A stretch of DNA of 33,155 nt from Anaerovorax odorimutans (GCA_016841185.1 JAENZQ010000034.1:1-33155); one strand, 5' to 3'; positions 7,254 through 33,155 are shown, counted from the stretch's first letter. Notes: a model not told the origin generated them from the letters alone. Numbers and translations are program-made.

Positions 7254-7299
7254 AGCAAATAATATTGTTTATAATTAAATGTAAAAAGGAGAGGAACAA

Positions 7300-8334: not shown

Positions 8335-8352
8335 TTGAAACTGTATGTTTAT

Positions 8353-8381
8353 TGAGCGATCATCATAATGATGATCGCTCA
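8353..8381 (+). promoter_or_regulatory. Perfect intercistronic hairpin between dctP and dctQ
   Basis: TGAGCGATCATCAT (8353-8366) and ATGATGATCGCTCA (8368-8381) are perfect reverse complements with one central base, so about 12 base pairs with a 3-5 base loop would form in RNA. The bases after it (gtaaaaag) lack a T-run. Such a hairpin just after a binding-protein gene commonly stabilises the upstream mRNA or partly blocks read-through, giving more binding protein than permease. Confidence 0.7.
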
Positions 8382-8391
8382 GTAAAAAGTC

Positions 8392-8411
8392 TATCCCGTT
8401 TTTTGGGGATA
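8392..8411 (+). promoter_or_regulatory. Small hairpin directly upstream of the dctQ ribosome binding site
   Basis: TATCCC (8392-8397) pairs with GGGATA (8406-8411) around a T-rich 8-base loop. The 3' arm is directly followed by tggaggg, the Shine-Dalgarno sequence of dctQ. The segment from TTTGGGGAT to GGAGGGAAATATGA is almost the same as that in front of position 3981, where a hairpin also ends in GGGGAT. The T-run is in the loop, so it is not a terminator. Confidence 0.45.
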
Positions 8412-8422
8412 TGGAGGGAAAT

Positions 8423-8908
8423 ATGAGGCTATTAAAATTAATAAATGGAAAATTTGAAGAAATTTTTTTGGTAGTCATATTGGTAATTATGGTAGTTTTA
8501 GTATTTTTGCAGGTGTGTATGCGATATGTATTCCAGGCATCTTTGTCATGGAGTGAAGAACTTGCAAGATATATGTTTTTATGGATTATATGGGTAGGAG
8601 CAGCTTATGCTACCAAAGAAGGTTCACATATCAGCCTCGATATTATTACAAGCAGACTACCAAGAAAAGGACAAATACTGACTAATGCTCTTAAATATAT
8701 AATATGGATCGCTTTTACGATTTTTCTTGCTTATATTTCATGGCAATTAACATTCATCATTTTTGAAAGAGGTCAGGTATCTGCTGCCATGAGAATCCCC
8801 ATGGGTTTCGCATATGCATCTATACCAACCGGTATTACTTTGATGCTGATCAGGCTTATTCAAAATGGTATAAAGGTATTTAAAGAAAGGGGGCAACAGA
8901 ATGGGTAA
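8423..8908 (+). CDS. dctQ: TRAP transporter small membrane subunit, DctQ family
   Basis: Integral membrane protein of 161 residues with four predicted transmembrane helices, the usual size of DctQ. Family landmarks are FLQVCMRYVFQASLSWSEEL near the N-terminus and ARYMFLWIIWVGAAYATKEG with HISLD following. ATG 8423 was chosen because ggaggg at 8413-8418 serves as its ribosome binding site; an in-frame ATG at 8411 overlaps that site. It overlaps dctM by 8 bases, which points to translational coupling. DctQ bridges the binding protein and DctM in the inner membrane complex. Confidence 0.93.
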   Translation: MRLLKLINGKFEEIFLVVILVIMVVLVFLQVCMRYVFQASLSWSEELARYMFLWIIWVGAAYATKEGSHISLDIITSRLPRKGQILTNALKYIIWIAFTIFLAYISWQLTFIIFERGQVSAAMRIPMGFAYASIPTGITLMLIRLIQNGIKVFKERGQQNG

Positions 8909-10190: not shown

Positions 10191-10200
10191 GAAAAAGTAT

Positions 10201-10218
10201 AGTAAAAGTAAAAGTAAA
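10201..10218 (+). repeat. AGTAAA hexamer repeat, three copies
   Basis: Three exact AGTAAA units follow an AGTAT stub just after dctM. Nothing else of note lies in the 77-base gap before the next gene apart from its RBS (aaaggagag). A more degenerate array of the same hexamer type is present at 15615-15644. Confidence 0.7.
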
Positions 10219-10267
10219 AGGATGAAAAAAGACATAATTTGAAACCATTTTTAAAGGAGAGAAAGAA

Positions 10268-18569: not shown

Positions 18570-19124
18570 ATGAAAGATTTAAATACCGTTGTAGCAGGTA
18601 ATTTGAAGCGAATCAGGGCAGAAATGAAGTTAAGTCTTGAAAAAGCAGCGGAGATAACAGGCGTCAGCAAGGCCATGCTGAGACAGATCGAAACAGAAGA
18701 ATCCAGTCCGACAGTCAATACCATCTGGAAGATCGCTTCCGGTTTAAAGATCCCGTATACTTCTATTATTAATATGCCGCAGCCGGATACGGTCGTAGTA
18801 ATGAAGTCCAATACAGAGCCTCAAATAGAAGATGGCGGAAGATACAGAGTATATTCCATTTTTCCTTCCGAACATGGACGGAAGTTTGATGTTTTTATGT
18901 TGGAATTGGAGGAGGGCGGATACTTTGCTTCCGGGTCTCACGGCCCTGAGACTGAGGAGTTCATCACGGTTTATGAAGGTGAATTAATGATCACTGTTGA
19001 AGATAAAGAATATCATATAAAAAAAGGAGATTCCATCAAATTTAAATCGGATAGAGACCATGCCTATCAAAATTCATCAAATCAATTGACACGATTAAGC
19101 ATGGTGATTTATTATGGGTTTTAA
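18570..19124 (+). CDS. XRE-family transcriptional regulator with C-terminal cupin sensor domain
   Basis: DNA-binding regulator of 184 residues. An XRE helix-turn-helix occupies about residues 7-62 (LKRIRAEMKLSLEKAAEITG, SKAMLRQIETEESSPTVNTI). A small cupin_2 barrel spans about 105-182, with HGPETEEFITVYEGELMITV and the GDSIKFKSDRDHAYQN motif, likely to bind a small molecule. RBS caaggag precedes ATG 18570. Such XRE-cupin proteins often control amino-acid exporters or catabolic genes; its divergence from azlCD makes that operon the most likely target. A PucR-type regulator follows after a 27-base gap. Confidence 0.9.
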   Translation: MKDLNTVVAGNLKRIRAEMKLSLEKAAEITGVSKAMLRQIETEESSPTVNTIWKIASGLKIPYTSIINMPQPDTVVVMKSNTEPQIEDGGRYRVYSIFPSEHGRKFDVFMLELEEGGYFASGSHGPETEEFITVYEGELMITVEDKEYHIKKGDSIKFKSDRDHAYQNSSNQLTRLSMVIYYGF

Positions 19125-19151
19125 AAATTGATATATTAAAAGGTGAGAATT

Positions 19152-20300
19152 ATGTCCATAACGGTAGAAGAAGCTTTAAATTTAAATGCTATGAAAACAG
19201 CTGAAGTGGTTGCCGGCAAAGATGGGCTGAGCCGGTTGATTCATCGTGTCAGCGTGTCGGAATGCCCCGAATTTGAAAGCATTGCCCATAAAAACTGGGA
19301 GGAAGACTCTTTGTTCCAGCCCGGTGACTTTTTTATTACAAGTTTTTATTCCATAAAGGACAACGAGGATCAGATGATGAAAACCGTTGAGCTATACAAT
19401 CGGTATCAATCCAGCGGATTATGCATCATCGATTTGTACCTGAAGGAGTTGCCGGCTCAAATAAATGAATATGCCAATATGATGGGGTACCCTATTATTT
19501 TCATAAACAGCAAAGTGGCTTATGCGGAACTGATCAGCGAGATCATGGAGTGCATTTATCTGAAAAGGGAACATAAATTGTTCAGCATGACCATCGATAA
19601 AATCAGAAAAGCCAACAATCCAGGCGATATAAAGAAAATGGCTTTCAGCATAAATAAACTCTTTAAAGAAAAAAGCATAGGAGCCTATATTTCGGAAGGC
19701 ACCCATCAGGATGCGGTTAATCAATATCTGAATAAAATCAATGATCAGAAGGCCCATATTGCTGTTAAATATAAACAAGGGGTTTTGATATTATACACTT
19801 GGGAGCAGGATGAAATAGACATTGCCGGAATAAAGGAAGAATTAGCCGTTTTTACCGGTATTCGAACCGGTATCAGTCAAATACATGAACATGTTCATGA
19901 CTTAAATAAGTCCATTAATGAGGCCATGATTGCTGCAGCATTTGCAGAGATACATTGCCATAGTGTTGTGGAGTATGAAGAACTGGGAATCTATAAATGG
20001 TTGTATCTTTTAAGAGAATCCGACGAATTGAAAGAGTATAGCAATACGGTAATCAAATCTTTATCGGATTATGATAAAAATAATAGTACCGAATTGCTTA
20101 AAACAGCCGGTATATACATCGACAATGACGGTGATTTCAAGAAGACTGCTAAGGTCATGTTTCAGCACGAAAATACCATAAGGTATCGGATCGCGAAAAT
20201 AAAAAGCATTTTGAAAATGAATAACAGAAACATAGAATTTTATGAAAAATTGTCCATAGCGGTTAAAGCAAAAAAAATGGAAAGTCTAAAAATAAGATGA
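19152..20300 (+). CDS. PucR-family transcriptional regulator
   Basis: Regulator of 382 residues. The N-terminal PucR ligand-sensing domain (about 1-125) begins with SITVEEALNLNAMKTAEVVA; the C-terminal PucR helix-turn-helix (about 320-375) shows LLKTAGIYIDNDGDFKKTAK and HENTIRYRIAKI. ATG 19152 was chosen because aaaggtga sits 7 bases before it; a GTG at 19143 lies within that RBS. PucR proteins activate purine, hydantoin and amino-acid-derivative degradation in Gram-positive bacteria, and PucR genes are common beside DUF917 genes, two of which lie downstream. It is therefore the leading candidate regulator of the operon that starts at 20481. A terminator overlaps its stop. Confidence 0.9.
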   Translation: MSITVEEALNLNAMKTAEVVAGKDGLSRLIHRVSVSECPEFESIAHKNWEEDSLFQPGDFFITSFYSIKDNEDQMMKTVELYNRYQSSGLCIIDLYLKELPAQINEYANMMGYPIIFINSKVAYAELISEIMECIYLKREHKLFSMTIDKIRKANNPGDIKKMAFSINKLFKEKSIGAYISEGTHQDAVNQYLNKINDQKAHIAVKYKQGVLILYTWEQDEIDIAGIKEELAVFTGIRTGISQIHEHVHDLNKSINEAMIAAAFAEIHCHSVVEYEELGIYKWLYLLRESDELKEYSNTVIKSLSDYDKNNSTELLKTAGIYIDNDGDFKKTAKVMFQHENTIRYRIAKIKSILKMNNRNIEFYEKLSIAVKAKKMESLKIR

Positions 20301-20327
20301 AGTGGCGTTAGCCACTTGTTATTTTTC
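20300..20327 (+). terminator. Rho-independent terminator after the PucR-type gene
   Basis: AAGTGGC (20300-20306) pairs with GCCACTT (20311-20317) around loop GTTA, followed by GTTATTTTTC. It starts in the stop codon and separates the regulator pair from the ABC importer operon. Confidence 0.85.
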
Positions 20328-20422
20328 TATAGGGCGTCTGTTTTTAAAAAAATATAAAAAAGAGGGCATATTTTTGTATTTATTTCAAAAGGCGAGAAGT
20401 AGAAGTCAACAGAATTTTATAG

Positions 20423-20464
20423 TATAATTAAATTTACTATTATAGCGCTTTAATGTACTAAATT
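20423..20464 (+). promoter_or_regulatory. Promoter -10 and overlapping dyad upstream of the peptide importer
   Basis: TATAAT at 20423-20428 is an exact -10; the -35 is weak (TAGAAG, 17 bases upstream). Directly downstream lies an imperfect dyad with ends AATTTA (20431-20436) and TAAATT (20459-20464) around a central AGCGCT, covering the likely transcription start. The position fits an operator for the neighbouring PucR-type protein or another regulator. Confidence 0.5.
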
Positions 20465-20480
20465 AAAAGGAGAGGGAAAA

Positions 20481-22076
20481 GTGAAAATACATATGAAAAG
20501 AAATTTGATGCTTTTACTTGTTATGATTTTGTTGGTAAGCCTTGCTTTTTCAGGCTGCGGCGGAGGTACCGGCAATGGTGATGAAGAACAGCAGCAACCG
20601 GTCAGTATCGCTTACTATGCAACCAACAGTGAGCCTATTTTGGATTGGGACCCGTCGGTCATGTTTTCCAACGGAATTATTGTACTCAATAATATCTATG
20701 AAACATTATTGAGATATGATGCGGTAAACAATGAAATTATTCCGGTTCTTGCAGAGTCATACGGTAAATCCGACGACAGTTTGGTTTGGACATTTAATAT
20801 CCGTCAAGGTGTTAAATTCCACGATGGTACCGATTTGAATGCCGAGGCTGTGAAGTATTCTATCGATAGAACCATGAGGATAAATAAAGGTGCTTCCTAC
20901 ATCTGGGCTGCCGTAAAAGAAATCAATGTGGTAGATGAGTATACCGTAGAATTTGTTCTGAATTATCCTGCTCCCATGGATTTGATTGCATCAACCGGAT
21001 ATGCGGCTTTTATTTATTCACCGGCGTCCGTTACATCTGATGACAGTGAATGGTTCAGTTCCGGCCAGGAATGCGGGACAGGTCCGTATATGCTTCAGAG
21101 TCAGGTTCCCGGAGACGAAGTTGTATTGACGAAATACGAAGAATACTGGAGCGGCTGGGAAGGCGAGCATTTTGACAAAGTAGTTATCAAGAAAGTTACA
21201 GAGACTTCTTCCAGAAGACAGATGATTGAGAAAGGTGAAGCCGATGTCACCATCAACCTTCCATATGAAGATGTCGAAGCGATGAAAGATAATGAAGATG
21301 TAACCATAGAGCTTGAAAACTCTTATATTAACGTTGCTTCATACTTCAATACGCAGAAAGCACCGTTGGATGACAAGCTTGTTCGACAGGCTTTGTCCTA
21401 TGCATTTCCATACGATGATGTGGTAGAATTTGTTTTAGGCGGTTATGGAACACAAGGCAGAGGTCCTGTGCCAAAAGGCTTATGGGGACATGGAAAGACA
21501 TTGAAACAATATACTTATGATCTTGATAAAGCGAAAGAATTATTAGCTGAAGCAGGCTATCCGGATGGCGGTTTCTCATTGCTGTACACATATATGTCCG
21601 GAGATGAAGAAGAAAAGAAAACAGCTCAGCTCTATAAAGCGGAATTGGCTAAAATAGGCGTTGATCTGGAAATCAGGGGAATGCCTTGGGACAGTCAGTG
21701 GGAAATGTCCAAAGGAGATCCTGAAGGAAGACAGGATATGCTGGTTATGTATTGGTGGCCCGATTATCCAAGCCCTGTAAGCTGGCTGTACAATTTATAC
21801 CATTCGGAAGAAGAGCCCTTATTTAACTTGGGATATTACAGCAATGAACAGGTGGATGCATTGATCGAGGAAGCGGATCAGAAAAGCGCATCTGATATTG
21901 CCGAAGCTGAAGAATTATTTGTTCAGGCACAGGAAATTATTGTGGATGAAGCACCTGCTATTTTCCAATATGATAAAATCAATGTCTGGGTAGAAAATAA
22001 TACATTCAAAGGACATGTTCCAAACCCTGCATACCCCAATGTGGTATTCTTCTACAATACTTACAGAGGTGAGTAA
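20481..22076 (+). CDS. Oligopeptide/dipeptide-type ABC transporter substrate-binding lipoprotein (SBP family 5)
   Basis: Extracytoplasmic binding protein of 531 residues, normal for the DppA/OppA family. The signal peptide (MKIHMKRNLMLLLVMILLVS onward) ends in lipobox FSGC, lipid-anchored at C26. Family signatures are LAESYGKSDDSLVWTFNIRQ with GVKFHDGTDLNAEAVKYSID, then GTGPYMLQS and, later, VRQALSYAFPYDDVV. GTG 20481 is the chosen start, with aaggagaggg in front; ATG 20493 is an alternative. The permeases follow after a terminator-like hairpin and 260 bases, so the lipoprotein is probably made in excess. Family members bind peptides, nickel, opines or glutathione; downstream peptidases favour peptides here. 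Confidence 0.93.
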   Translation: MKIHMKRNLMLLLVMILLVSLAFSGCGGGTGNGDEEQQQPVSIAYYATNSEPILDWDPSVMFSNGIIVLNNIYETLLRYDAVNNEIIPVLAESYGKSDDSLVWTFNIRQGVKFHDGTDLNAEAVKYSIDRTMRINKGASYIWAAVKEINVVDEYTVEFVLNYPAPMDLIASTGYAAFIYSPASVTSDDSEWFSSGQECGTGPYMLQSQVPGDEVVLTKYEEYWSGWEGEHFDKVVIKKVTETSSRRQMIEKGEADVTINLPYEDVEAMKDNEDVTIELENSYINVASYFNTQKAPLDDKLVRQALSYAFPYDDVVEFVLGGYGTQGRGPVPKGLWGHGKTLKQYTYDLDKAKELLAEAGYPDGGFSLLYTYMSGDEEEKKTAQLYKAELAKIGVDLEIRGMPWDSQWEMSKGDPEGRQDMLVMYWWPDYPSPVSWLYNLYHSEEEPLFNLGYYSNEQVDALIEEADQKSASDIAEAEELFVQAQEIIVDEAPAIFQYDKINVWVENNTFKGHVPNPAYPNVVFFYNTYRGE

Positions 22077-22096
22077 TTAATAGCAATAGAATCTTT

Positions 22097-22120
22097 AGGG
22101 GGGCTGTAAGTCCCCCTTTT
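22097..22120 (+). terminator. Terminator or attenuator between binding protein and permease genes
   Basis: AGGGGG (22097-22102) pairs with CCCCCT (22112-22117), loop of 9 bases, with TTTT ending at 22120. It sits 20 bases after the lipoprotein stop. No strong new promoter was recognised before the permease gene, so partial read-through is expected. Confidence 0.75.
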
Positions 22121-22163
22121 AAGTAGTACCATGAGCAAAGATATATGATTAAGATCCATTACG

Positions 22164-22187
22164 AAGATTTTGCTTGGGCAAAATCTT
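22164..22187 (+). promoter_or_regulatory. Second hairpin in the binding-protein/permease gap
   Basis: AAGATTTTGC (22164-22173) and GCAAAATCTT (22178-22187) are a perfect ten-base stem with loop TTGG. There is no immediate T-run. It may add to RNA stability or attenuation together with the terminator-like stem 44 bases upstream. The rest of the 260-base gap holds a TTGACA at 22213 without a fitting -10. Confidence 0.6.
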
Positions 22188-22336
22188 TGGAGTCTTTTAA
22201 AATTAGGGCTTATTGACAGCCTGTTTAAGAGCTGTTCGGTAGTGCTTATTAAAATATTGAATTAGAAAACTTATATTAATAATGAAGATTATTTAATATC
22301 TGACATAGATATCCTTAAGATAAAGGAGCAGAGGAA

Positions 22337-23347
22337 ATGAAAAAATATATTCTTCGCAGAATTCTGCTTGGGATTATCGTACTTTTCGGCGTTATTGCCA
22401 TAACTTTTACCATTACCAGAGTTATACCTTCCGATCCGGCAGCCAAATGGGTCGGGCCAAGAGCTACACACGAACAAATACAGGAAGCCCGAATTGAGCT
22501 TGGGCTGGATCAGCCTTATATCATCCAGTTTGGCAAGTATATTTCGGACCTGCTTCATGGAGATCTGGGATACTCGTTGAGGAGCCATCAGCCTGTTGCA
22601 ACGGAATTAAAGAATTATATTCCTGCAACAGTAGAACTGGTTCTTTTGGCTACTTTACTGGCCATTATTTTAGGGATTCCATTGGGGATCTATTCTGCAA
22701 AATATAAAAACAGATGGCTGGATCATCTGAGCCGTCTTTTCTCGGTAGGTGCAGTATCCCTGCCCACTTTCTGGGTGGCCTTGTTTTTGCAGCTTATCTT
22801 CTTCAGTAAGCTTGAAATCCTTCCACTCGGAGGGAGGATCAGTACCAATATTTCTATTATGTATGAATTACCCAATATAACCGGAATGCTTCTGTTTGAC
22901 AGTTTGGTCACAGGAAAATTTATGATTTTCAAAGATGCTTTCCTCCATATGATACTGCCGGGAATTACGGTAGCCCTGTATCCTATAGGGCTGGTAGCAC
23001 GGATGACCCGGTCTGCACTGCTGGAAATATTAAACGAAGAATACATTGTAGCATCCAGATCTTATGGATTGCCTGAAAAAACGGTTTTATGGATATATGC
23101 ACTGAAAAATTCACTGGGCCCTACCTCTACGGTAGTGGCATTATCCGTAGGATATACATTAATGAATACATTTCTTGTAGAAGCGATCTTCAGTTGGCCG
23201 GGAATCGGCAGATATATTTCTGATGCAGTTATCGGATTGGATTATCCCGCAATAATGGGAGTAACTATTTTTTCGGCAGTGGTTTATCTGGCGCTGAATT
23301 TGATTGCCGACATTATCATTGCATTGGACCCGAGGGTCAGAGTTTGA
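22337..23347 (+). CDS. Peptide-type ABC transporter permease, DppB/OppB family
   Basis: Inner-membrane subunit of 336 residues with six hydrophobic helices. DppB landmarks are YILRRILLGIIVLFGVIAIT at the N-terminus, the DPAAKWVGPRATHEQIQEAR segment and LGLDQPYIIQFGKYI. The ATPase-contact loop reads RMTRSALLEILNEEYIVASR, followed by GLPEKTVL, and the tail has EAIFSWPGIGRYI. RBS aaaggagcagagg precedes ATG 22337. The partner permease begins 13 bases after its stop. It forms the translocation pore with that partner, powered by the fused ATPase downstream. Confidence 0.93.
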   Translation: MKKYILRRILLGIIVLFGVIAITFTITRVIPSDPAAKWVGPRATHEQIQEARIELGLDQPYIIQFGKYISDLLHGDLGYSLRSHQPVATELKNYIPATVELVLLATLLAIILGIPLGIYSAKYKNRWLDHLSRLFSVGAVSLPTFWVALFLQLIFFSKLEILPLGGRISTNISIMYELPNITGMLLFDSLVTGKFMIFKDAFLHMILPGITVALYPIGLVARMTRSALLEILNEEYIVASRSYGLPEKTVLWIYALKNSLGPTSTVVALSVGYTLMNTFLVEAIFSWPGIGRYISDAVIGLDYPAIMGVTIFSAVVYLALNLIADIIIALDPRVRV

Positions 23348-23360
23348 TAAGGAGACGGAC

Positions 23361-24254
23361 ATGTTAACGAAATTATTTTCTTCAAAACTGATGGAACCTA
23401 AGTTAAAAGAAGCAAAGTTTTCTTTGTTTCTTTTGAATCGAAACAAACTGACGAAAATTTCCCTGATTATAGTTTTGTTATTGATTCTGATCGCTGTTAT
23501 TTCTCCCTGGATTGCACCTTATCCCGGGCATACTGATTTGGAAGTCAATCCTCAGGATAAGCTGCTGCCTCCTTCGAGCCAGTATTTTTTCGGTACGGAT
23601 GAACTGGGGAGGGATATATTCAGCAGAGTCATATTTGGCACCCGAATATCTTTAAATACGGCCCTCGTTGCAGTAATTTTATCTTTGATCATCGGGATCC
23701 CTCTGGGAGCTGTGGCAGGTACCATTGGCGGTAAAATTGATGAATTGATCATGAGAATAACCGATATATTTCTAAGCTTTCCGCCTTTGCTATTGGCCAT
23801 CGCCATTGCTGCAGTTTTAGGCCCTTCTTTACAGAATGCTATGATTGCGATTGCCATATCCTGGTGGCCCTGGTACACCCGTTTGGTACGGGGACAGGCA
23901 ATTTCTCTGAAAGAAAGGCAGTTTGTCAAGGCTGCCGAAGCCATCGGGACTTCTCAAAATAAAATCATATTTAAACATATTATACCCAATTGTATTTCAC
24001 CGGTAATTGTTCAGGCTTCCATGGATATGGGCGGTGTGATTCTTACGATTTCTTCTTTGAGCTTTCTGGGCCTTGGCGCTCAGGCACCAACGCCTGAATG
24101 GGGGCTTATGATCAGTACCAGCAGAAATTTCTTTTTAAATGCCTGGTGGTACAGCATTTTCCCCGGAATTGCCATATTTATTACTGTTCTTGCCTTCAAC
24201 TTATTAGGGGACGGGTTAAGAGAGATACTTGATCCCAAGACAAGAAAGAATTAG
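23361..24254 (+). CDS. Peptide-type ABC transporter permease, DppC/OppC family
   Basis: Inner-membrane subunit of 297 residues with six hydrophobic helices. An N-terminal FLLNRNKLTKISLIIVLLLI segment leads into the first helix; then FGTDELGRDIFSRVIFGTRI, the EAA loop QFVKAAEAIGTSQNKIIFKH, and LSFLGLGAQAPTPEWGLMIS, all typical of DppC. ATG 23361 was chosen: ggag is 8 bases before it and it falls just past the dppB-like stop, whereas an in-frame ATG at 23304 would run 44 bases into the preceding gene without an RBS. It pairs with the upstream permease. Confidence 0.93.
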   Translation: MLTKLFSSKLMEPKLKEAKFSLFLLNRNKLTKISLIIVLLLILIAVISPWIAPYPGHTDLEVNPQDKLLPPSSQYFFGTDELGRDIFSRVIFGTRISLNTALVAVILSLIIGIPLGAVAGTIGGKIDELIMRITDIFLSFPPLLLAIAIAAVLGPSLQNAMIAIAISWWPWYTRLVRGQAISLKERQFVKAAEAIGTSQNKIIFKHIIPNCISPVIVQASMDMGGVILTISSLSFLGLGAQAPTPEWGLMISTSRNFFLNAWWYSIFPGIAIFITVLAFNLLGDGLREILDPKTRKN

Positions 24255-24266
24255 GGGGACAGAATA

Positions 24267-26057
24267 ATGACGAAAAAATACTTTGAAGTCAACAATTTAA
24301 AAGTAAATTATAATACCTTTGAAGGGACAAAGATTGTCTTGGACATCGACCATATTGGCATAGAGAAGGGAGAAGCCTATGGTTTAGTGGGTGAAAGCGG
24401 TGCCGGTAAAACCGTACTGGCTTTGACCATATTAAGACTTCTTTCAGTACCTCCCGGAGAAATCGTCAGCGGAGAAATCTTGATAGATGGTGAAAATTTG
24501 CTGGAAAAGACGGAATCGCAGATGCGGGAAATTCGCGGGCGTAAGATTGCTATGATCTTTCAGGATCCTATGTCTTCACTGAATCCGGTATTCACTGTAG
24601 GCTACCAGATGTTGCAGGTCATAAAAATCAATCAGAAAGCAACAGAAAAGGAAGCGGTGAAAATCGCTGTTGAGATGATAGAACGGGTTAAACTGCCTGA
24701 TGCTGAAAATATCATGAGTAAATATCCCCATGAATTGAGTGGAGGCCAGAGGCAAAGAGTTATTATTGCAATGGCCTTATCATGCGGTGCACAATTTATT
24801 ATTGCCGATGAACCAACGCGAAATCTGGATGTTACCATTCAGGCAGGAATACTCAAGCTTTTGAAAGAGCTTCAGGAGCAGTTCAACGTTACTGTTTTAT
24901 TTATTGCCAATAATTTGGGGCTGGTTTCTGCGGTGTGTGATGAGATGGGCATTCTTTATAACGGCAGGATCATTGAAAGAGGGTTTATTAATAAAGTGAT
25001 GACAAATCCTCAGCATGACTATACAAAGACTTTGTTAAGTGCAGTGACTCAATCTCAAAACGAGAAGAAAAAAGACAAAAGCTCAAACAGTAACGATGAA
25101 ATTTTGAAAGTAAGTCAATTGAAAAAATATTTTCCTGTTAAAAAGGGGTTTTTAGATAAGGAAAGCTTATTTGTAAAAGCAGTAGACGGAGTGGATTTTG
25201 GAATAAATAAAGGAGAGGTGTTTGGCGTTGTAGGTGAATCCGGATGCGGCAAATCCACATTGGTTAACACCATACTATTTCTGCATGAACCTACTGAGGG
25301 GAAGGTTATTTTTGACGGTAAAGATATATACAGTCTTAAAAAGAATCATTTAAGAAAAGCAAGAAAAGATATTCAGATTGTATTCCAGGATCCATTCTGG
25401 TCTTTAAATCCCAGATGGCTTGTAAAAGATATAATCGGCGAACCTCTTCAGGTACATGAAAATCTGTCTGCGGAAGCATATGTGGACAGAGTGGGTGCAC
25501 TTTTGGAAATGGTCGGGCTTCCGAAAGAAGGGGCTTTTAAGTATCCTCATGAATTCAGCGGTGGGCAAAGGCAGAGAATCGCAATTGCCAGGGCATTATC
25601 GGTAGAACCAAAACTGGTGGTTCTGGATGAACCTACATCATCCATCGATGTGCTTTCACAAGCTCAGATTCTGGATCTGCTTTATGAGTTGAAGGAAAAA
25701 ATGGGATTGACGTATATATTGATTTCACATGACTTAAGTGTGGTTCATTATATGTCGGATAAAATCATTGTGATGTATCTTGGCAAAATTGTTGAATACG
25801 GGAAGGCCGAAGAAGTATTTAAAGATCCCTTACATCCCTATACGGTTGCATTGTTTAATGCCATTCCCGATTTGAATACACAAAGTGTTAAGGAACTGGC
25901 AACGCTTAAAGGGAATGTGCCAAGTGCAATAAATTTGCCGCAGGGCTGCAGATTTCATCCAAGGTGTGACAAAGCGACGGAGCGTTGTAAAAGCATTGAG
26001 CCTGAAGCTTTATATGTAGACGGGCGTATTGTAGCATGTCATTTGTTTTCGAAATGA
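24267..26057 (+). CDS. Fused double ABC ATPase for the peptide importer (DppD-DppF type)
   Basis: One 596-residue protein carries both nucleotide-binding domains that Dpp/Opp systems often make separately. Domain 1 (about 5-260): Walker A GESGAGKT (43-50), Q-loop MIFQDP, signature LSGGQRQRV (157-165), Walker B FIIADE with E182. Domain 2 (about 278-560): Walker A GESGCGKST (323-331), FSGGQRQRI, Walker B VVLDE with E455, H-loop H488 in ISHDL. In domain 1 the H-loop reads FIANNL where FITHDL is expected, so the switch histidine is replaced by N215, and the D-loop reads TRNLD rather than TTALD. The C-terminal Cys-containing tail RFHPRCDKATERC is normal for DppF. RBS aggggga. It energises the upstream permeases. 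Confidence 0.93.
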   Translation: MTKKYFEVNNLKVNYNTFEGTKIVLDIDHIGIEKGEAYGLVGESGAGKTVLALTILRLLSVPPGEIVSGEILIDGENLLEKTESQMREIRGRKIAMIFQDPMSSLNPVFTVGYQMLQVIKINQKATEKEAVKIAVEMIERVKLPDAENIMSKYPHELSGGQRQRVIIAMALSCGAQFIIADEPTRNLDVTIQAGILKLLKELQEQFNVTVLFIANNLGLVSAVCDEMGILYNGRIIERGFINKVMTNPQHDYTKTLLSAVTQSQNEKKKDKSSNSNDEILKVSQLKKYFPVKKGFLDKESLFVKAVDGVDFGINKGEVFGVVGESGCGKSTLVNTILFLHEPTEGKVIFDGKDIYSLKKNHLRKARKDIQIVFQDPFWSLNPRWLVKDIIGEPLQVHENLSAEAYVDRVGALLEMVGLPKEGAFKYPHEFSGGQRQRIAIARALSVEPKLVVLDEPTSSIDVLSQAQILDLLYELKEKMGLTYILISHDLSVVHYMSDKIIVMYLGKIVEYGKAEEVFKDPLHPYTVALFNAIPDLNTQSVKELATLKGNVPSAINLPQGCRFHPRCDKATERCKSIEPEALYVDGRIVACHLFSK

Positions 26058-26077
26058 AAAGCATAAGGAGGGTTATT

Positions 26078-27184
26078 TTGAAAAAGCTTACACTTCAGGA
26101 AGTTAAGGATATTTTAGTGGGATGTACCATTTTGGGGACCGGAGGCGGAGGAAAACTTGAAACAGGTATTGATATCGCAGAATCGGATTATGCTGAGGGA
26201 TTGGCGTATATCATGATGGATTTTGAAGAGATAAAAGATGAAGCACTGTTTGCCTGCCCTTATTTTTGCGGTTCCATCGGTCCAGAAGAAAGAAATGATA
26301 ATTACAGCAAATATCAAAAATCAGATGAACTGGAAACGGTTTTTTCCACAAAAGCATTAGAAAGGTTTTTAGGAAAAGAAATCAACGGGATTGTATCTGT
26401 GGAATACGGAGGATCCAATACTGCTGTTGCCATGTCAACAGCTGCAAGGCTTGGAAAGCCCATTGTTGACGGAGATGCAGCAGGAAGGGCAGTTCCGGAT
26501 CTTCAGTATTCCACTTTTTATGTTACCGGAAAACCCATTTATCCTTTGGCTGTTGCAGATGCCATCGGAGATGTAGCGGTTTTAGAAAAAGTCGTCGATG
26601 ATTTCAGAGCAGAAGATATGGTTCGTGCTTTAGCTGTGGTCAGTGGTGATAAAATCGGGATGACAGATCATCCTTGCCTCGGAAAAGACCTTAAAAACTC
26701 CATCATACCTCATGCCCTTTCATTTGCAGGTCGGGTGGGCAGAGCACAAAGATCAGCAAATGAACAGGGTAAAAATCCTATTGATGAAATTATGGCAGCA
26801 GGAAAAGGATACCGACTTTTTGAAGGAAAGGTAGCAATGGATTCTCAATGGAAAAATAAAGCGGGATTTACCATAGGGACCATTGATATTCAAGGAATGG
26901 AAGGATATAAGGGGAAAGAGGCTCAAATTTGGTTTAAAAATGAAAACATCATGTTCTATATAGACGGTAAAGCGAGAGTGACGGCACCGGATCTGATCTG
27001 TGTAGTAGAAAAAAATACAGGATATCCCATAAACAATCCTTTTTGCAAGAAAAATATGGAAGTAACGGTTTTGGGATTCAAGGCGCCTCATTTTTGGAGA
27101 CAGGGAAAGGGACTTGAGATTTTGAATCCAAGAGAATTTGGATTCGATATCGAATATATTCCCATTGAAGAGCAATACGAATAA
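26078..27184 (+). CDS. DUF917 family protein, copy 1
   Basis: Cytoplasmic protein of 368 residues in the DUF917 (S-methyl thiohydantoin desulfurase-like) family. TTG 26078 is the chosen start: aaggaggg lies 5 bases before it, and the product then aligns without offset with the paralogue two genes on (GCTILGTGGGG at residues 15-25 in both). Other landmarks are CGSIGPEE, VEYGGSNTAVAMSTAARLGK, DGDAAGRAVPDLQ, GDVAVLEKVVDDFRAEDMVR and APDLICVVEKNTG. Glycine-rich N-terminus and the DxDxAGR motif suggest a nucleotide- or substrate-binding role, but biochemistry is poorly known. Family members commonly sit in hydantoin or amino-acid-derivative loci with PucR regulators; here they flank a peptidase-like enzyme instead. 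Confidence 0.88.
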   Translation: MKKLTLQEVKDILVGCTILGTGGGGKLETGIDIAESDYAEGLAYIMMDFEEIKDEALFACPYFCGSIGPEERNDNYSKYQKSDELETVFSTKALERFLGKEINGIVSVEYGGSNTAVAMSTAARLGKPIVDGDAAGRAVPDLQYSTFYVTGKPIYPLAVADAIGDVAVLEKVVDDFRAEDMVRALAVVSGDKIGMTDHPCLGKDLKNSIIPHALSFAGRVGRAQRSANEQGKNPIDEIMAAGKGYRLFEGKVAMDSQWKNKAGFTIGTIDIQGMEGYKGKEAQIWFKNENIMFYIDGKARVTAPDLICVVEKNTGYPINNPFCKKNMEVTVLGFKAPHFWRQGKGLEILNPREFGFDIEYIPIEEQYE

Positions 27185-27213
27185 TTCAGTGTTTTAAGTA
27201 GGGAGGCATATAA

Positions 27214-28254
27214 ATGGCGAAGTTTTACGAATATGAACTGGGTAAAGCGGCAGATATATTGGTTAATAAGATTTTTAAATTGAAAGAGGGAGAAACATTT
27301 ATCATTACTGCTGATACGGAATCCGATGAAAGAGTGGTGACAGCAACGGCAAGAAGTGCTTTTTCCGCAGGTGCCAAACCCATGGTGATATGGCTGGCAT
27401 CGCCTTTGGGCGTAGGAAAAGCAGCCGACCCCATGCTGCCGGTAGCTTCTCTGACAGCGGCATTAAAACATGCAGATGCATGGGTCGAATTTAATAATCA
27501 ATGGCTGTTGTATTCCACGCCTTTTGAAAAAGCCATGGAGGAGAACAAAAAGTTAAGATATTTGTGTCTTGTGGGAATGGACGTGGATATGATGGTAAGG
27601 ACCATCGGAAGAGTCGATAAGGAGAAACTTTCCCTGTTCCTGAAAAAAATATCCTCAAGGACAGGAGAAGCAAAAGTTATGAGAGTGACGACTCCAGCGG
27701 GGACGGATGTATCCTTTGAAATAGAACCTAAAAATACACTGGCATGCGATGACGGCAGTGCCCATCAACCGGGGATCTATATGCTGGCCGGGCAGATCAA
27801 TGTCATTCCAAGATGGGAAACCATAGAAGGAACCATTGTGTTTGACGGTGCTTTATCTCCTCCCTGTGGGATGCTGGAGCATCCCGTTACGCTAAAGGTT
27901 GAAAAAGGGAAAGTCATAGGAATTTCAGGCGGCAGACAGGCTCACCAGTTTTCAGACTGGCTTTCAGGCCACAATGATCCGAACATGTTCAGGATGGCAC
28001 ATATTGCTTATGGGTTCAACCCCGGAGCAAAACTGACAGGCAATATTCTTGAAGATGAGCGGGTATGGGGTGCCACCGAATGGGGATTAGGATATGTCAG
28101 CCCTCTTGAAGCTCCCCCTGACGGTATCAATGCCGTATCGCATTCAGACGGGATCTGCCTGAAATCATCTGTATGGCTGGATGGTATGAAAATAATGGAC
28201 AATGGTGTAATTACAGATGAAGAACTTAAAGAAATGATAAAGGATATTATTTAA
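27214..28254 (+). CDS. M29 aminopeptidase / NicX-like metalloenzyme
   Basis: Protein of 346 residues related to the M29 (AmpS, aminopeptidase T) fold, which also includes the ring-opening 2,5-dihydroxypyridine dioxygenase NicX. Likely metal-binding residues are H263 in MAHIAYGFNPGA and the H-x-D pair H310/D312 in VSHSDGICLK; glutamates in WETIEG (about 202-205) may assist. Size fits the shorter NicX-like branch better than classical AmpS (about 410 residues). In an anaerobe an oxygenase is unlikely, so hydrolysis of a peptide or cyclic amide is the better guess. RBS gggaggca precedes ATG 27214. It lies between two DUF917 genes with gaps of 29 and 20 bases, so the three probably act together. 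Confidence 0.8.
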   Translation: MAKFYEYELGKAADILVNKIFKLKEGETFIITADTESDERVVTATARSAFSAGAKPMVIWLASPLGVGKAADPMLPVASLTAALKHADAWVEFNNQWLLYSTPFEKAMEENKKLRYLCLVGMDVDMMVRTIGRVDKEKLSLFLKKISSRTGEAKVMRVTTPAGTDVSFEIEPKNTLACDDGSAHQPGIYMLAGQINVIPRWETIEGTIVFDGALSPPCGMLEHPVTLKVEKGKVIGISGGRQAHQFSDWLSGHNDPNMFRMAHIAYGFNPGAKLTGNILEDERVWGATEWGLGYVSPLEAPPDGINAVSHSDGICLKSSVWLDGMKIMDNGVITDEELKEMIKDII

Positions 28255-28274
28255 ATTAAAGGGGAAGTATAAAT

Positions 28275-29384
28275 ATGAAAATATTGAGCAGACAGGAATT
28301 ATATGATATTTTGTACGGATGTACGATTTTAGGTACCGGAGGAGGCGGAGGCCTTCAGGAAGGGCTGGACCTGATCGGTAAAGCTTTAGAACAGGGAAAA
28401 GCGTTCAAACTGGTAAGCTTTGACGAGGTTGATGATGAAGCTTTAATCGGGACACCCTATATGTGTGGTGCCATATCACCTGAAACCGAGGAAGAAAGAA
28501 AAAAATACGAAGGTCTGCCGAGGATAAAAGATCATTCGGCCCTCAAAGCTATGGAGGCCATGGAGGATTATTATAAAGAAGCTTTCTATGGTGTAGTTTC
28601 CACGGAACTGGGCGGCGGTAATACTGCAGTAGCTTTTTATACAGGGGCTATGTCGGGAAAATACATTATAGATGCCGATCCGGCGGGGCGCTCGGTACCG
28701 GAACTTCAGCATTCAACATACTTTATTCATGATCTGCCCATTTATCCTCTTTCTGTGGCCAATGATTTTGGGGATGTGGCTGTTTTTAAAGAAGTTGTGG
28801 ATGATTTCAGAGCTGAAGCATTGGTTCGTGCATTGGCTGTGGTAAGCAATAATAATGTCAGCGTCGTTGATCATCCTGCCAGGGCTAAAGACCTGAAGAA
28901 TGCCATGATTAAAGGGGCCATTTCTTATGCTCTTGACATCGGCAGGGCTTATCGTCTCTCAAAAGAAAAAAATGAGGACATTGCGGCTAAAGTATCAGAA
29001 GCAGGGAATGGCCTTTTAAGGTTTAAAGGAAGAGTATCAGATTTTAATTATAAGACTGAAGACGGCTTTACCATTGGAGAAGTTTTTATTGACGGAACAG
29101 GTGAATATAAAGGAAGCACCTACAGAACCTGGTTTAAAAATGAACATATTTTTTCTTGGCTTAACGGAGAGGTAGATGTGACGGTTCCGGATCTGATATG
29201 CATGATCTGTGAAGATACGAAAGAGCCGGTCACCAATCCCAATTATGAAGCAGGAATGAATGTTGCTGTGTTTGCACTTCCTGCACCGGCAGAATGGACG
29301 ACACAAAGGGGATTGGAGGTCTTTGGACCAAAGAGCTTTGGAAAGGACATAGAATATATTCCTTTGAAGAAAAAGATTAAATAA
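28275..29384 (+). CDS. DUF917 family protein, copy 2
   Basis: Paralogue of the gene at 26078, 369 residues, co-linear from residue 1. Shared landmarks: GCTILGTGGGGG (15-26), CGAISPETEEE, VSTELGGGNTAVAFYTGAMS, DADPAGRSVPELQ, YPLSVANDFGDVAVFKEVVD, VRALAVVS, VPDLICMICEDT and the closing FGKDIEYIPL. Differences such as DGDAAGRAVPD against DADPAGRSVPE suggest divergence for separate substrates or a heteromer rather than redundancy. RBS aaaggggaagt precedes ATG 28275. It is part of the same transcript as the M29-like enzyme and the dipeptidase that begins 13 bases later. Confidence 0.88.
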   Translation: MKILSRQELYDILYGCTILGTGGGGGLQEGLDLIGKALEQGKAFKLVSFDEVDDEALIGTPYMCGAISPETEEERKKYEGLPRIKDHSALKAMEAMEDYYKEAFYGVVSTELGGGNTAVAFYTGAMSGKYIIDADPAGRSVPELQHSTYFIHDLPIYPLSVANDFGDVAVFKEVVDDFRAEALVRALAVVSNNNVSVVDHPARAKDLKNAMIKGAISYALDIGRAYRLSKEKNEDIAAKVSEAGNGLLRFKGRVSDFNYKTEDGFTIGEVFIDGTGEYKGSTYRTWFKNEHIFSWLNGEVDVTVPDLICMICEDTKEPVTNPNYEAGMNVAVFALPAPAEWTTQRGLEVFGPKSFGKDIEYIPLKKKIK

Positions 29385-29396
29385 GAAGGTGGTTAT

Positions 29397-30794
29397 TTGG
29401 AAATTTCTAAATGGGTCGAATCTTATAAAGAAGATGTTATTAAAGATTTGAAGGGCCTTCTGGCAATCAGAAGCGTTGAAGAAAAAGCAAGTGATGAAAA
29501 ACCTTTTGGAGAAGGTCCGTATCGTGCTCTTCGCTACATGCTTGATTTAGGAGCATCCATGGGATTCAAAACAAAGAATGTAGATAATTATGCGGGTCAT
29601 ATCGAGTATGGGGACGGAAATGAAATTATAGGCGTTTTGGTCCATCTGGATGTTGTTCCGGAGGGAGAAGAACCATGGGTATATCCTCCTTATTCCGGAG
29701 AAGTTCACGAAGGCAGGATATATGGCCGGGGGGCTATTGATAACAAGGGGCCTGCTGTTGCCGTCCTTTATGCACTGAAAGCGTTAAAAGAAAGTAATCT
29801 CCCTTTAAATAAAAAAATTCGGTTGATCCTGGGAACCAATGAAGAGTCAGGTTGGGGCGGTATCCATTACTATCTTAAAAACGAAAAAGCACCGGATATG
29901 GCCTTCAGTCCGGATGCGGATTTCCCGGTCATTCATGCGGAAAAGGGCATTCTGATTTTTGATCTAGTTAAAGATTTTTCATTTCAGCCTGACAAAGGGT
30001 TGGTATTAAAAAGCATAAAGGGCGGAAATGCACCTAATATGGTGGCGGATAAATGTACTGCAGTATTAAAAAATGAGAATATGAACAATGTGCTTCAAGA
30101 ACTGAGTAACTTTACTGAGATAACCGGTTATCACCTGACTTCAAAAATAGAAGGGGATTTGATTACCATTGTTTCAACAGGAAAGTCTGCCCATGGTGCG
30201 ACACCGGAGAAAGGGATTAATGCTATTTCTCAGATGATGTTGTTTTTAGCTCAGCTTGAATTTATTAATTCCGACATCAATGATTTTATAAGATTTTATG
30301 CGGAGCATATCGGAATGGAATATAACGGTGAGTCTTTCGGGTGCGAATTTGAAGATGAAGTGTCCGGTAAACTGACTTTTAATGTAGGTATGATCGAGGC
30401 AGATGAAAAAAAGGGCAGGATAACTGTCAATATCCGATACCCTGTTACCATAGACAGCGAAGATGTCTTTAAAGCATTGAAAAGCAAAACCAAGAAAAAG
30501 ATATTTGAGATCATTCATGGTGAGGATATGAAGCCCAAATATTTGCCCAAAGACCATGAGTTAGTAAAAACACTGATGAATGTCTATCAGAAACATACCG
30601 GGGATTATGACACAGCTCCTATTGCCATAGGCGGGGGAACCTATGCAAGAGCCATTGAAAAGGCTGTTGCTTTCGGACCGGTATTTATCGGTCAGGAGGC
30701 ATTGGAGCATCAAAAGAACGAGTATATAGAAATCGATTTGCTGATAAAAGCTGCAAAGATTTTTGCGGATGCCATGTATGAATTAGCTAAATAG
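29397..30794 (+). CDS. M20 family dipeptidase, PepV-like
   Basis: Cytoplasmic zinc dipeptidase of 465 residues, the typical PepV length. Metal ligands and catalytic residues in order: H83 and D85 in LVHLDVVPEG, D115 in GRGAIDNKG, the general-base glutamate in GTNEESGWGG (149-150), D173 in FSPDADFPV, and a late histidine in ALEHQKNEYIE. A lid domain occupies about 190-370. The start is TTG 29397 with RBS aaggtgg 4 bases upstream; the first residues (MEISKWVESYKEDVIKDLKG) match PepV beginnings. It would split dipeptides delivered by the ABC importer or released by the upstream enzymes. It ends the operon before a strong terminator. Confidence 0.92.
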   Translation: MEISKWVESYKEDVIKDLKGLLAIRSVEEKASDEKPFGEGPYRALRYMLDLGASMGFKTKNVDNYAGHIEYGDGNEIIGVLVHLDVVPEGEEPWVYPPYSGEVHEGRIYGRGAIDNKGPAVAVLYALKALKESNLPLNKKIRLILGTNEESGWGGIHYYLKNEKAPDMAFSPDADFPVIHAEKGILIFDLVKDFSFQPDKGLVLKSIKGGNAPNMVADKCTAVLKNENMNNVLQELSNFTEITGYHLTSKIEGDLITIVSTGKSAHGATPEKGINAISQMMLFLAQLEFINSDINDFIRFYAEHIGMEYNGESFGCEFEDEVSGKLTFNVGMIEADEKKGRITVNIRYPVTIDSEDVFKALKSKTKKKIFEIIHGEDMKPKYLPKDHELVKTLMNVYQKHTGDYDTAPIAIGGGTYARAIEKAVAFGPVFIGQEALEHQKNEYIEIDLLIKAAKIFADAMYELAK

Positions 30795-30985: not shown

Positions 30986-32419
30986 ATGGCTGAGTACAAA
31001 AAAATATCAATGGGTACAAAATTTGGATACGCGGCTGCGGCTTTGGGAGATGCCTGCAGTTATACATTTATAGGTGCATTTTTGTTATTCTTCCTAACAT
31101 CGGTTGTCGGGATAAATCCAATCATAGCAGGTACCATCGCAGCTATTGGCGGTATATGGAATTCGGTATGCAGTCCTGTTATAGGGTATGTATCCGACAA
31201 ATCGGTTTCAAAATACGGAAGAAGAAGACCATTTTTATTAGCTGCAGCCTTTCCTCTTGGTATTTCAATCGTCATGCTGTTTAGTAATATGGATTTGAGT
31301 GAAACTCTCAAGGTGTTGTACTATGGTGCATTCGTCATCATTTTTTGGAGTTCGTTTTCATCCTTTTATGTACCTTATCTGGCTTTTGGAGCAGAGATCA
31401 CCGGTGATTACAGCGAAAGAACGGTTCTAAGATTTTACGCTTATGTTTTTAATTTTATTGGTGCGGTCATTGGTGTGGTTTTTCCGACATTTCTTGTTGA
31501 TTATTTATGCAGCAGAGGAGCTACTACAGAGAAAGCCTGGCAGAGTGCAGCAATGATCGTATGCATATTTACCACAGTCTCAATTTTAGTGACATGGTAT
31601 TGTACAAAAAATAAAGAGAAAGTCAGAGACAGGGTACCTATAGAAAAGAAAAATCAGACATCTGTATATTCTTTTATGTCTTCAATGATAAAAGAATATT
31701 GGGAGATACTGCAACTTAAACCGATCAGGTATCTGATCGGAGGGAGCATATTTTATCTTGTTGCCGGAACGATGGTGAATTCTGACCGCATGTATTTTTT
31801 GACTTACAATTTAGGTATGGACCCGGGCGTGGTTTCAAGGGTTTATTTGGTTGCTTCAGTATCAGGGGTTGTATTTTCACCATTTATTATTGGCTGCAGC
31901 AATATTTTGGATAAGAGAAAAGCATATATCTTATGTTCGGCAGTTTCTTTTACCGGAATAATTATTGCGTGGATTACAGGAATACATTCCTTTTGGGGTG
32001 TTATAGCGTATTCTTTTATTTTCTCATTAGGGAACAGTTGTTATTGGCAATTGTTTCCTGCAATGATTTATGACGTCTGCGAGGTAGATGAGCTTGTTTC
32101 GGGTCAGAGAAGAGAAGGAATCATTATGTCGGTGCAGTCTTTATCGGAAGCACTTTCAAGTGCTGTAGCAGTTCAGATTTTAGGTATCATCTTGGGATTA
32201 TCCGGTTTTGACGGGGATGTTTCAGTACAGGCAGAGTTGACTTTAGGTTGGATCAGTAATTGTTTTACGATTATTCCTGCTGTTTTTATGCTGCTGACTA
32301 TTGTAATGGTTATAAAATATCCGATTACTAAGAAAAGGTATATCTTGATGCAGCTTGCTCTTGAGAAGAGAAACAAAGGGGAAGAATATGAGGCAGAAGA
32401 ATTAAAAAAACTTATATAG
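30986..32419 (+). CDS. GPH-type cation symporter (MFS superfamily)
   Basis: Membrane protein of 477 residues with 12 predicted helices. The GPH (glycoside-pentoside-hexuronide:cation symporter) signature is clear: SPVIGYVSDKSVSKYGRRRP at about 54-77, with LGDACSYTFIGAFLLFFLTS in helix 1 and the ISGVVFSPFIIG-like segment in the second half. Family members couple Na+ or H+ to sugar uptake, but related clades carry other solutes; the neighbours here are peptidases and amidohydrolases rather than glycosidases. RBS agagga is about 9-10 bases before ATG 30986, a wide spacing. A lipoprotein amidohydrolase begins 135 bases later, so it may import the product of that surface enzyme. Confidence 0.88.
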   Translation: MAEYKKISMGTKFGYAAAALGDACSYTFIGAFLLFFLTSVVGINPIIAGTIAAIGGIWNSVCSPVIGYVSDKSVSKYGRRRPFLLAAAFPLGISIVMLFSNMDLSETLKVLYYGAFVIIFWSSFSSFYVPYLAFGAEITGDYSERTVLRFYAYVFNFIGAVIGVVFPTFLVDYLCSRGATTEKAWQSAAMIVCIFTTVSILVTWYCTKNKEKVRDRVPIEKKNQTSVYSFMSSMIKEYWEILQLKPIRYLIGGSIFYLVAGTMVNSDRMYFLTYNLGMDPGVVSRVYLVASVSGVVFSPFIIGCSNILDKRKAYILCSAVSFTGIIIAWITGIHSFWGVIAYSFIFSLGNSCYWQLFPAMIYDVCEVDELVSGQRREGIIMSVQSLSEALSSAVAVQILGIILGLSGFDGDVSVQAELTLGWISNCFTIIPAVFMLLTIVMVIKYPITKKRYILMQLALEKRNKGEEYEAEELKKLI

Positions 32420-32495: not shown

Positions 32496-32554
32496 AAAGG
32501 CTATTAAAATGTCTTAGCTATGTATTATAAAAATACAAGGGAGGGGACAATTTG

Positions 32555-33155
32555 ATGAATTACAGAAGATTACTAGTTTTTTTAATGCTTTTTCTTTTAT
32601 TACTTCTTAGTGCCTGTGCTCAGGAAGCAGGCGAAGAGACTCTGGAAACAGCAGATATGATTTTAACCAACGGTACAATTTATACTGCAGACCAAGAGGA
32701 TACCATTGCTGAGGCAATTGCGGTGAAAGACGGCAAAATAATTTTTGTGGGCACGGCAGAAGGAGCAGAAGACTATCAGGGTGAGTCCACTCAAGTGGTT
32801 GATCTGGGAGGAGGAATGCTGCTTCCGGGTATGATTGACAGCCATCTTCATGCTCCTGGGACAAAACTTACAGAACTTTATTGCATTGACTTAAATGGGA
32901 TCCTTAGGCTGGAAGAAACTTTAAAGACTATAGAAACTTATATTCAAAATAACCCTGACATGGAAATCTATTATGGCTCAGGATTTTCGATAGGTGCTTT
33001 CAGCGGAGAAGAAGCCGCCAAGGGACCTAAGAAAGAAAGGCTGGATGCGATTTGTCCTGACAAGCCTGTTATCCTTAATTCGTATGACGGGCATGTTACT
33101 TGGATGAACAGTAAAGCTTTTGAGGAATTTGGTATTACTAAGGATACTCAGGTAC
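32555..33155 (+). CDS. Lipoprotein YtcJ-type amidohydrolase (N-terminal 200 residues; continues beyond window)
   Basis: The frame is open from ATG 32555 (RBS gggagggg, 8 bases upstream; TTG 32552 is an alternative) to the end of the window. The N-terminus has a basic start, a leucine-rich core and lipobox LSAC, so the mature enzyme should be lipid-anchored outside the cell. Then ADMILTNGTIYTADQ, AIAVKDGKIIFVG and LLPGMIDSHLHAP with the first HxH metal motif mark the Amidohydro_3 (YtcJ) family, the same as the two cytoplasmic copies at 4038 and 5661 but clearly diverged. It probably trims an amide-containing substrate outside the membrane, whose product the neighbouring symporter may take in. 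Confidence 0.87.
   Translation, partial: MNYRRLLVFLMLFLLLLLSACAQEAGEETLETADMILTNGTIYTADQEDTIAEAIAVKDGKIIFVGTAEGAEDYQGESTQVVDLGGGMLLPGMIDSHLHAPGTKLTELYCIDLNGILRLEETLKTIETYIQNNPDMEIYYGSGFSIGAFSGEEAAKGPKKERLDAICPDKPVILNSYDGHVTWMNSKAFEEFGITKDTQV

What the first reader, a model, noticed from the sequence alone, without database searches (positions are those of the whole stretch)
26078..29384. DUF917 - M29/NicX-like enzyme - DUF917 sandwich in a peptide-uptake operon
Two co-linear DUF917 paralogues flank a small metalloenzyme whose H263, H310 and D312 resemble the metal triad of NicX and part of the M29 site. DUF917 is usually reported near hydantoinases, which are absent. The trio sits between a peptide importer and a dipeptidase under a PucR-type regulator. 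A reasonable hypothesis is a three-protein system that opens a cyclic or modified peptide (hydantoin, thiohydantoin or diketopiperazine) before the dipeptidase finishes it. This is the best candidate here for an undescribed system.
Basis: inference. Interest (0 to 1): 0.65.

Follow-up and report, generated by a model that had tools for sequence, protein, structure and literature searches.

The report
Likely anaerobic cyclic-peptide degradation operon
A conserved gene set in oxygen-avoiding bacteria and archaea pairs a peptide importer with an altered metallopeptidase-like protein, two related DUF917 proteins and a dipeptidase, and most likely imports and opens small ring-shaped peptides or hydantoin-like compounds, a step for which the literature I could search names no clear gene in anaerobes.

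Summary
The window holds DUF917-A (26078-27184), a NicX/M29-fold protein (27214-28254) and DUF917-B (28275-29384), tightly spaced on one strand between an Opp-type importer and PepV. The trio is not a one-off. DUF917-A and -B are two separate orthologous groups that recur around the same NicX-like orthologue in Bacillota, Synergistota and Spirochaetota. NicX-like genes lie near DUF917 about 20 times more often than chance predicts. The wider set also contains cyclodipeptide-oxidase pairs, hydantoin-racemase homologues and, in gut Clostridia, a compact NicX-like/PucR/NCS1-permease/PepV operon. NCS1 permeases carry small N-heterocycles and PepV cleaves linear dipeptides, so the enzyme between them should open a ring. 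Best explanation: uptake and hydrolytic opening of cyclic dipeptides or hydantoin-like rings, then PepV. This is inference from anatomy; no activity is shown. New detail: the NicX-like family is two paralogue classes that exchange two M29 metal-ligand positions (H263/E289 versus E263/H289), often encoded side by side. An O2-dependent NicX-type reaction is unlikely in this apparently anaerobic genome. The CDO/DUF917/racemase neighbourhood was already noted in PMC11055893; the NicX-like partner, the A/B pair and the ligand swap I found nowhere described, within a limited literature search.

The parts
18570..19124 (+). XRE/cupin-type regulator; membership uncertain
   Evidence: ORF; next to pucR on the same strand; no family scan was run on it
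19143..20300 (+). PucR-family regulator
   Evidence: PF07905 79 bits and PF13556 54 bits; PucR genes recur next to relatives of the NicX-like gene
20481..22076 (+). family-5 substrate-binding lipoprotein of the importer
   Evidence: PF00496 331 bits; PDB relatives include dipeptide-, oligopeptide-, haem- and nickel-binding proteins
22337..23347 (+). OppB/DppB-type permease
   Evidence: ORF; orthologues in 38 related loci
23361..24254 (+). OppC/DppC-type permease (start taken at an internal ATG)
   Evidence: ORF; orthologues in 36 related loci
24267..26057 (+). fused OppD-OppF ATPase in one chain
   Evidence: two PF00005 and two oligo_HPY domains
26078..27184 (+). DUF917-A (S-Me-THD-like paralogue A)
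   Evidence: PF06032 140 bits, PF20906 192 bits; A clade; fold like 2o3i, Z 39.8
27214..28254 (+). NicX/M29-fold metalloenzyme, H-type (Q194, H263, E289, H310, D312)
28275..29384 (+). DUF917-B (S-Me-THD-like paralogue B)
   Evidence: PF06032 137 bits, PF20906 198 bits; B clade
29397..30794 (+). PepV-type Mn dipeptidase (M20, Sapep family)
   Evidence: NF005591 585.8 bits over cut-off 435; TIGR01887 543.7 over 208
30986..32419 (+). GPH-type MFS_2 symporter; membership uncertain
   Evidence: PF13347 239 bits; not recurrent in related loci

Best explanation
The operon 19143-30794 is a PucR-regulated catabolic unit for small cyclic amides, most likely cyclic dipeptides (2,5-diketopiperazines) or related hydantoin-like derivatives. 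The Opp-type importer brings the compound in. The NicX/M29-fold protein, a metal-dependent hydrolase derived from the M29 aminopeptidase fold, opens an amide bond of the ring. The two DUF917 paralogues act on variants of the ring before or with it (for example on imidazolidine-type or S-substituted rings, as in their named relatives the thiohydantoin desulfurases). PepV then splits the linear dipeptide into amino acids for fermentation. Shown here: gene identities, fold, tight spacing, recurrence of the set, conserved candidate metal ligands and above-chance association. Inferred: operon transcription, substrate, order of steps, hydrolytic chemistry, and any physical complex.
For: (1) Association: of 27 strong NicX-like hits in 14 other genomes of the phylum, 16 lie within 10 kb of DUF917, against about 0.7 expected. 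(2) DUF917-A and -B are distinct orthologue groups (support 98/93 and 100/99) kept around the same NicX-like orthologue in Bacillota, Synergistota and Spirochaetota. (3) In the closest relatives (L030, L031, L041; 66-69% identical NicX-like) the same PucR-SBP-OppBCDF-NicX-DUF917B row is preceded by a PF00881 + PF19585 pair, the two subunits of cyclodipeptide oxidase. PF19585 is rare (11 loci in 10 of 398 genomes), and 9 of the 11 lie within 10 kb of NicX-like or DUF917. (4) Nine of 80 loci have NicX-like + NCS1 permease + PepV and no DUF917 seen. In Blautia and a Roseburia MAG these form one compact operon with PucR. The NCS1 protein is related to cytosine permease and to hydantoin permease Mhp1. 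A permease family for N-heterocycles plus a dipeptidase implies a ring-opening step, and the NicX-like protein is the only enzyme left. (5) M29 fold (Z about 25), invariant H310/D312 and nearly invariant E282. (6) Bacterial cyclo(Gly-Leu) breakdown was reported as hydrolase then dipeptidase, with the first enzyme unclear (PMC3852281).
Against: No activity is known to me for any H-type NicX-like protein. The H-type has lost the M29 acidic ligand (Q194 instead of E), so a working dinuclear peptidase site is not assured. The window genome lacks the cyclodipeptide oxidase, so the link to diketopiperazines comes through relatives. Racemases and desulfurase-type DUF917 point as much to hydantoins as to diketopiperazines. 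Family-5 binding proteins also bind non-peptides. NCS1 specificity cannot be read from sequence. PepV copies beside some relatives score just under the NF005591 cut-off.
Confidence: 0.5

Rival explanations
1. Linear-peptide scavenging: the NicX-like protein is simply a divergent M29-type aminopeptidase working with PepV on imported linear peptides, and the DUF917 proteins are unrelated passengers.
For: M29 fold; Opp-type importer with dipeptide-binding relatives; PepV is a true dipeptidase family; many archaeal loci have NicX-like beside Opp genes without DUF917.
Against: DUF917-A/B linkage is far above chance and old. NCS1 permeases, cyclodipeptide-oxidase pairs and racemases recur. The H-type replaces three M29 ligand positions.
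Confidence: 0.2
2. Hydantoin-type pathway proper: DUF917-A/B hydrolyse a hydantoin or thiohydantoin ring to an N-carbamoyl compound and the NicX-like protein or the M20 enzyme removes the carbamoyl group, replacing ATP-dependent hydantoinase.
For: DUF917 relatives are named thiohydantoin desulfurases; hydantoin-racemase homologues recur; Mhp1-related permeases; HyuA absent from the genome.
Against: Window DUF917 proteins score 65-79 bits against equivalog cut-offs of 440-450. The M20 enzyme is PepV, not a carbamoylase, by its best model. DUF917 is missing from many loci that keep the rest.
Confidence: 0.2
3. Oxygen-dependent ring cleavage: the NicX-like protein is a dioxygenase of pyridine-diol-type rings, as NicX is.
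For: Best fold and sequence match is NicX, with its His/His/Asp positions kept.
Against: No haem-copper oxidase found while PFOR-type genes are many, so the host looks anaerobic. Relatives come from lineages generally known as anaerobes, including Blautia, Thermococcus and Flexilinea. E289, absent from NicX, is kept in 86 of 88 H-type proteins.
Confidence: 0.03

Closest known systems
Non-CDPS cyclodipeptide-oxidase neighbourhoods (PMC11055893)
   Same: DUF917, hydantoin-racemase and AroM homologues, OPT and peptide ABC importers and peptidases near CDO genes; hydantoin-like substrates suggested.
   Different: That paper, in the passages read, does not name the NicX/M29-like protein or the A/B paralogue pair; the window version has no CDO.
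NicX, 2,5-dihydroxypyridine 5,6-dioxygenase (PDB 7cn3)
   Same: Whole fold (Z 35.3) and the His/His/Asp metal positions.
   Different: 21% identity; the H-type adds an almost invariant E289 where NicX has a hydrophobic residue; apparently anaerobic hosts; peptide-type neighbours.
M29 aminopeptidases AmpS, AmpT, PepS (1zjc, 2ayi, 4icq)
   Same: Fold (Z about 25) and the His-x-Asp pair at 310/312.
   Different: H-type has Q194, H263, E289 where M29 and the E-type paralogues have E, E, H; shorter chain; below the Pfam M29 cut-off.
S-methyl-thiohydantoin / thiohydantoin desulfurases (NF058532, NF058529)
   Same: Same two-domain DUF917 family, matched over nearly the full length.
   Different: Scores far below the equivalog cut-offs; two different paralogues side by side.
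ATP-dependent hydantoinase / 5-oxoprolinase HyuAB
   Same: A ring-opening role is proposed here too.
   Different: HyuA absent from the genome; no ATP-dependent ring-opening enzyme in the operon.

Membership tests
DUF917 / S-Me-THD-like (PF06032 + PF20906) | both domains over curated cut-off in each protein | tested here: met
   140/192 bits and 137/198 bits against 27
Thiohydantoin desulfurase (NF058529, NF058532) | equivalog cut-off 440-450 bits | tested here: not met
   65.6-79.1 bits
Thiohydantoin desulfurase (NF058529, NF058532) | desulfurase activity | not testable with these tools
   needs enzyme assay
M29 aminopeptidase | Pfam M29 cut-off | tested here: not met
   24.4 bits against 27, first 60 residues only
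M29 aminopeptidase | E / E / H / H / D metal-ligand set (ligand identities from memory) | tested here: not met
   window protein has Q194, H263, E289, H310, D312; E-type paralogues keep the M29 set
M29 aminopeptidase | fold | tested here: met
   Z 23.6-25.1 to AmpT, AmpS, PepS over 310-316 residues
NicX dioxygenase | His/His/Asp metal triad (identity from memory) and fold | tested here: met
   H263, H310, D312 aligned with 7cn3; Z 35.3
NicX dioxygenase | O2-dependent cleavage of 2,5-dihydroxypyridine | not testable with these tools
   host looks anaerobic, which argues against it but does not test it
PepV dipeptidase | NF005591 equivalog cut-off 435 | tested here: met
   585.8 bits; the stricter TIGR01886 model (632) is not reached, 436 bits
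Cyclodipeptide-oxidase gene cluster | nitroreductase PF00881 + DUF6092 PF19585 pair | tested here: not met
   PF19585 absent from the window genome; pair present in close relatives L030, L031, L041
ATP-dependent hydantoinase HyuAB | PF01968 subunit | tested here: not met
   no match in the genome; 6 of 14 controls rang

The most novel reading that the evidence does not exclude
The H-type NicX-like family is a previously unrecognised ring-opening hydrolase for cyclic dipeptides in anaerobic bacteria and archaea, made from the M29 peptidase fold by exchanging the ligands at two metal-site positions. It often works with an E-type sister encoded next to it and with a conserved DUF917-A/B pair that handles modified rings.
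Probability: 0.3. Interest if true: 0.75.

Novelty: new variant of a known kind. Interest (0 to 1): 0.55.

Why it matters
Cyclic dipeptides are abundant in nature, but little was known about their breakdown, and the first enzyme of cyclo(Gly-Leu) hydrolysis was reported as unclear (PMC3852281, 2013; later work outside the open library may exist). If right, this gives a concrete gene family to test in cultured gut bacteria such as Blautia, gives a setting for the DUF917 proteins and for cyclodipeptide oxidases in anaerobes, and offers a clear case of a metal site rewired between two sister enzymes.

Tried and rejected
A fold link between DUF917 and a known enzyme class: only the uncharacterised 2o3i matches (Z 39.8); the rest is below Z 5 and uninformative. 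One DUF917 copy as a dead subunit: no support, since both keep E107, D129, R135, N286, E287 and D303. Chance neighbours: rejected. A genome-wide file for own scripts was not available. Literature: DUF917 occurs in 4 open papers, of which 3 were opened and only the CDO paper bears on function; 'thiohydantoin desulfurase' in none; M29 with NicX in none. A paper on a reductive uric acid pathway was checked and describes different enzymes. Plasmid relatives in Proteobacteria are distant, at most 33% identity.

Full report
WHAT IS THERE. DUF917-A starts at a TTG at 26078 behind AAGGAGG and ends at 27184. The NicX/M29-like gene runs 27214-28254 and DUF917-B 28275-29384. Gaps are 20, 29, 20 and 12 bases, each with a purine-rich site. 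Upstream on the same strand are a PucR-type regulator and an Opp-type importer with a fused D-F ATPase. Downstream is PepV. The DUF917 proteins carry both S-Me-THD domains well over cut-off, but stay at 65-79 bits against the 440-450 bit cut-offs of the named desulfurases: family yes, that activity not shown.

THE MIDDLE PROTEIN. By sequence it is closest to NicX (E 1.7e-12 alone; 3e-35 by profile, with PepS 8e-12 and AmpS 1e-6). Its model (pLDDT 95.7) aligns to NicX at Z 35.3 and to M29 peptidases at Z about 25. In 114 family members the residues at 263 and 289 change together. 88 H-type proteins have H263 with E289 (86) or Q (2); 26 E-type proteins all have E263 with H289. H310 and D312 are invariant. 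Position 194 is Q in 85 H-type and E in all E-type proteins; this E lies in the 'GE.Y.AP' motif that aligns with 'EEVFTAP' of M29. So the E-type keeps the M29 ligand set (ligand identities from memory) and the H-type exchanges two positions and loses one acid. The two classes split once on the tree (SH-aLRT 99). At 19 places in the loci fetched, H and E genes follow one another in this family on one strand; in 15 of them the gap is 11-90 bases. NicX itself has His/Leu/His/Asp at positions 263/289/310/312 by the printed alignment, so the window protein lies between M29 and NicX.

RECURRENCE. 80 named loci were read with my own ORF calls and homology labels. An importer gene occurs in 39, DUF917 in 28, racemase-like in 27, nitroreductase in 23, PucR in 19, PF19585 in 14, NCS1 in 14 and PepV in 13. 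These 80 are the best matches to the NicX-like query, many are contig ends, and the counts are lower bounds. A and B orthologues directly flank the NicX-like gene in L033 (Acetomicrobium, with PepV just before) and L075 (Spirochaetaceae) and, with racemase-like genes inserted, in L029 and L032. In L056 and L086, A lies before the importer and B after the NicX-like gene. The DUF917 tree separates A (9 rows, 98/93) from B (15 rows, 100/99). In an even sample of 398 genomes of the phylum, 16 of 27 strong NicX-like hits lie within 10 kb of DUF917 against 0.7 expected, and 17 of 121 weaker ones against 0.6 (the expectation assumes 2.8 Mb genomes and random placement, and hits within one genome are not independent).

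LINK TO CYCLIC AMIDES. The nitroreductase + PF19585 pair is the two-subunit cyclodipeptide oxidase described in PMC11055893, which also reports DUF917, hydantoin-racemase, AroM and transporter genes near non-CDPS oxidases. In L030, L031 and L041, whose NicX-like proteins are 66-69% identical to the window's, that pair opens the same operon. In the 398-genome sample 9 of 11 PF19585 loci lie within 10 kb of a NicX-like or DUF917 gene (counted by eye from the listed places). The window genome itself has no PF19585, but its second locus on C26 has PucR-like, DUF917, an NCS1 permease and an E-type protein in a row.

THE REDUCED SET. In Blautia, a Roseburia MAG and Lutispora the NicX-like gene sits with PucR, an NCS1 permease and PepV, and no DUF917 was seen nearby (families; the L084, L091 and L103 PepV copies fall slightly below NF005591). 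The Blautia permease resembles cytosine permease first and hydantoin permease Mhp1 second. N-heterocycle import plus linear-dipeptide cleavage leaves ring opening for the NicX-like protein. This is my main argument for its role, and it is inference: NCS1 substrates cannot be read from sequence.

OXYGEN. No haem-copper oxidase subunit was found (8 of 14 controls rang), and PFOR-type genes are many. An O2-using NicX reaction is therefore unlikely, though not excluded.

VERDICT. The proposed function is plausible, better supported than before, and untested. I rate it a new variant of the cyclic-amide (hydantoin/diketopiperazine) catabolic clusters already noticed around cyclodipeptide oxidases.

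Noticed in passing
window 1469-2734: An aminotransferase-like reading frame is split into two ORFs (1469-2104 and 2222-2734): a frameshift in the assembly or a broken gene.
   Followed up: no
L023 (G000:C26) 5826-11261: Second locus in the same genome: PucR-like regulator, DUF917, NCS1 permease and an E-type NicX/M29-like protein in a row.
   Followed up: partly
L025 8656-15387 and L026 2670-9688: Distant E-type NicX/M29-like proteins between two small membrane proteins and a pyroglutamyl-peptidase-like gene, with an 1100-aa unknown protein nearby: perhaps a pyroglutamate route.
   Followed up: no
L034, L035, L036, L038, L042 (Terraquivivens and an uncultured archaeon): H-type and E-type NicX-like genes in tandem (gaps 24-43 bases), in four of the five facing an importer operon: a possible two-subunit enzyme.
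   Followed up: partly
L017 6656-8164: A 503-aa protein with a C-terminal AroM domain and an unassigned N-terminal half of about 280 residues, recurring beside DUF1177 and DUF917.
   Followed up: no
window 3981-7253 and 32552-33155: Two paralogous amidohydrolase-like proteins in tandem and a third, lipoprotein-like one (Amidohydro_3) cut by the contig end.
   Followed up: no
NZ_LR594668.1 (L108) 6829-9053: Variovorax sp. SRS16, from linuron-contaminated soil, has a 33% identical NicX-like gene overlapping an M20 peptidase gene and followed by a ring-hydroxylating dioxygenase.
   Followed up: no
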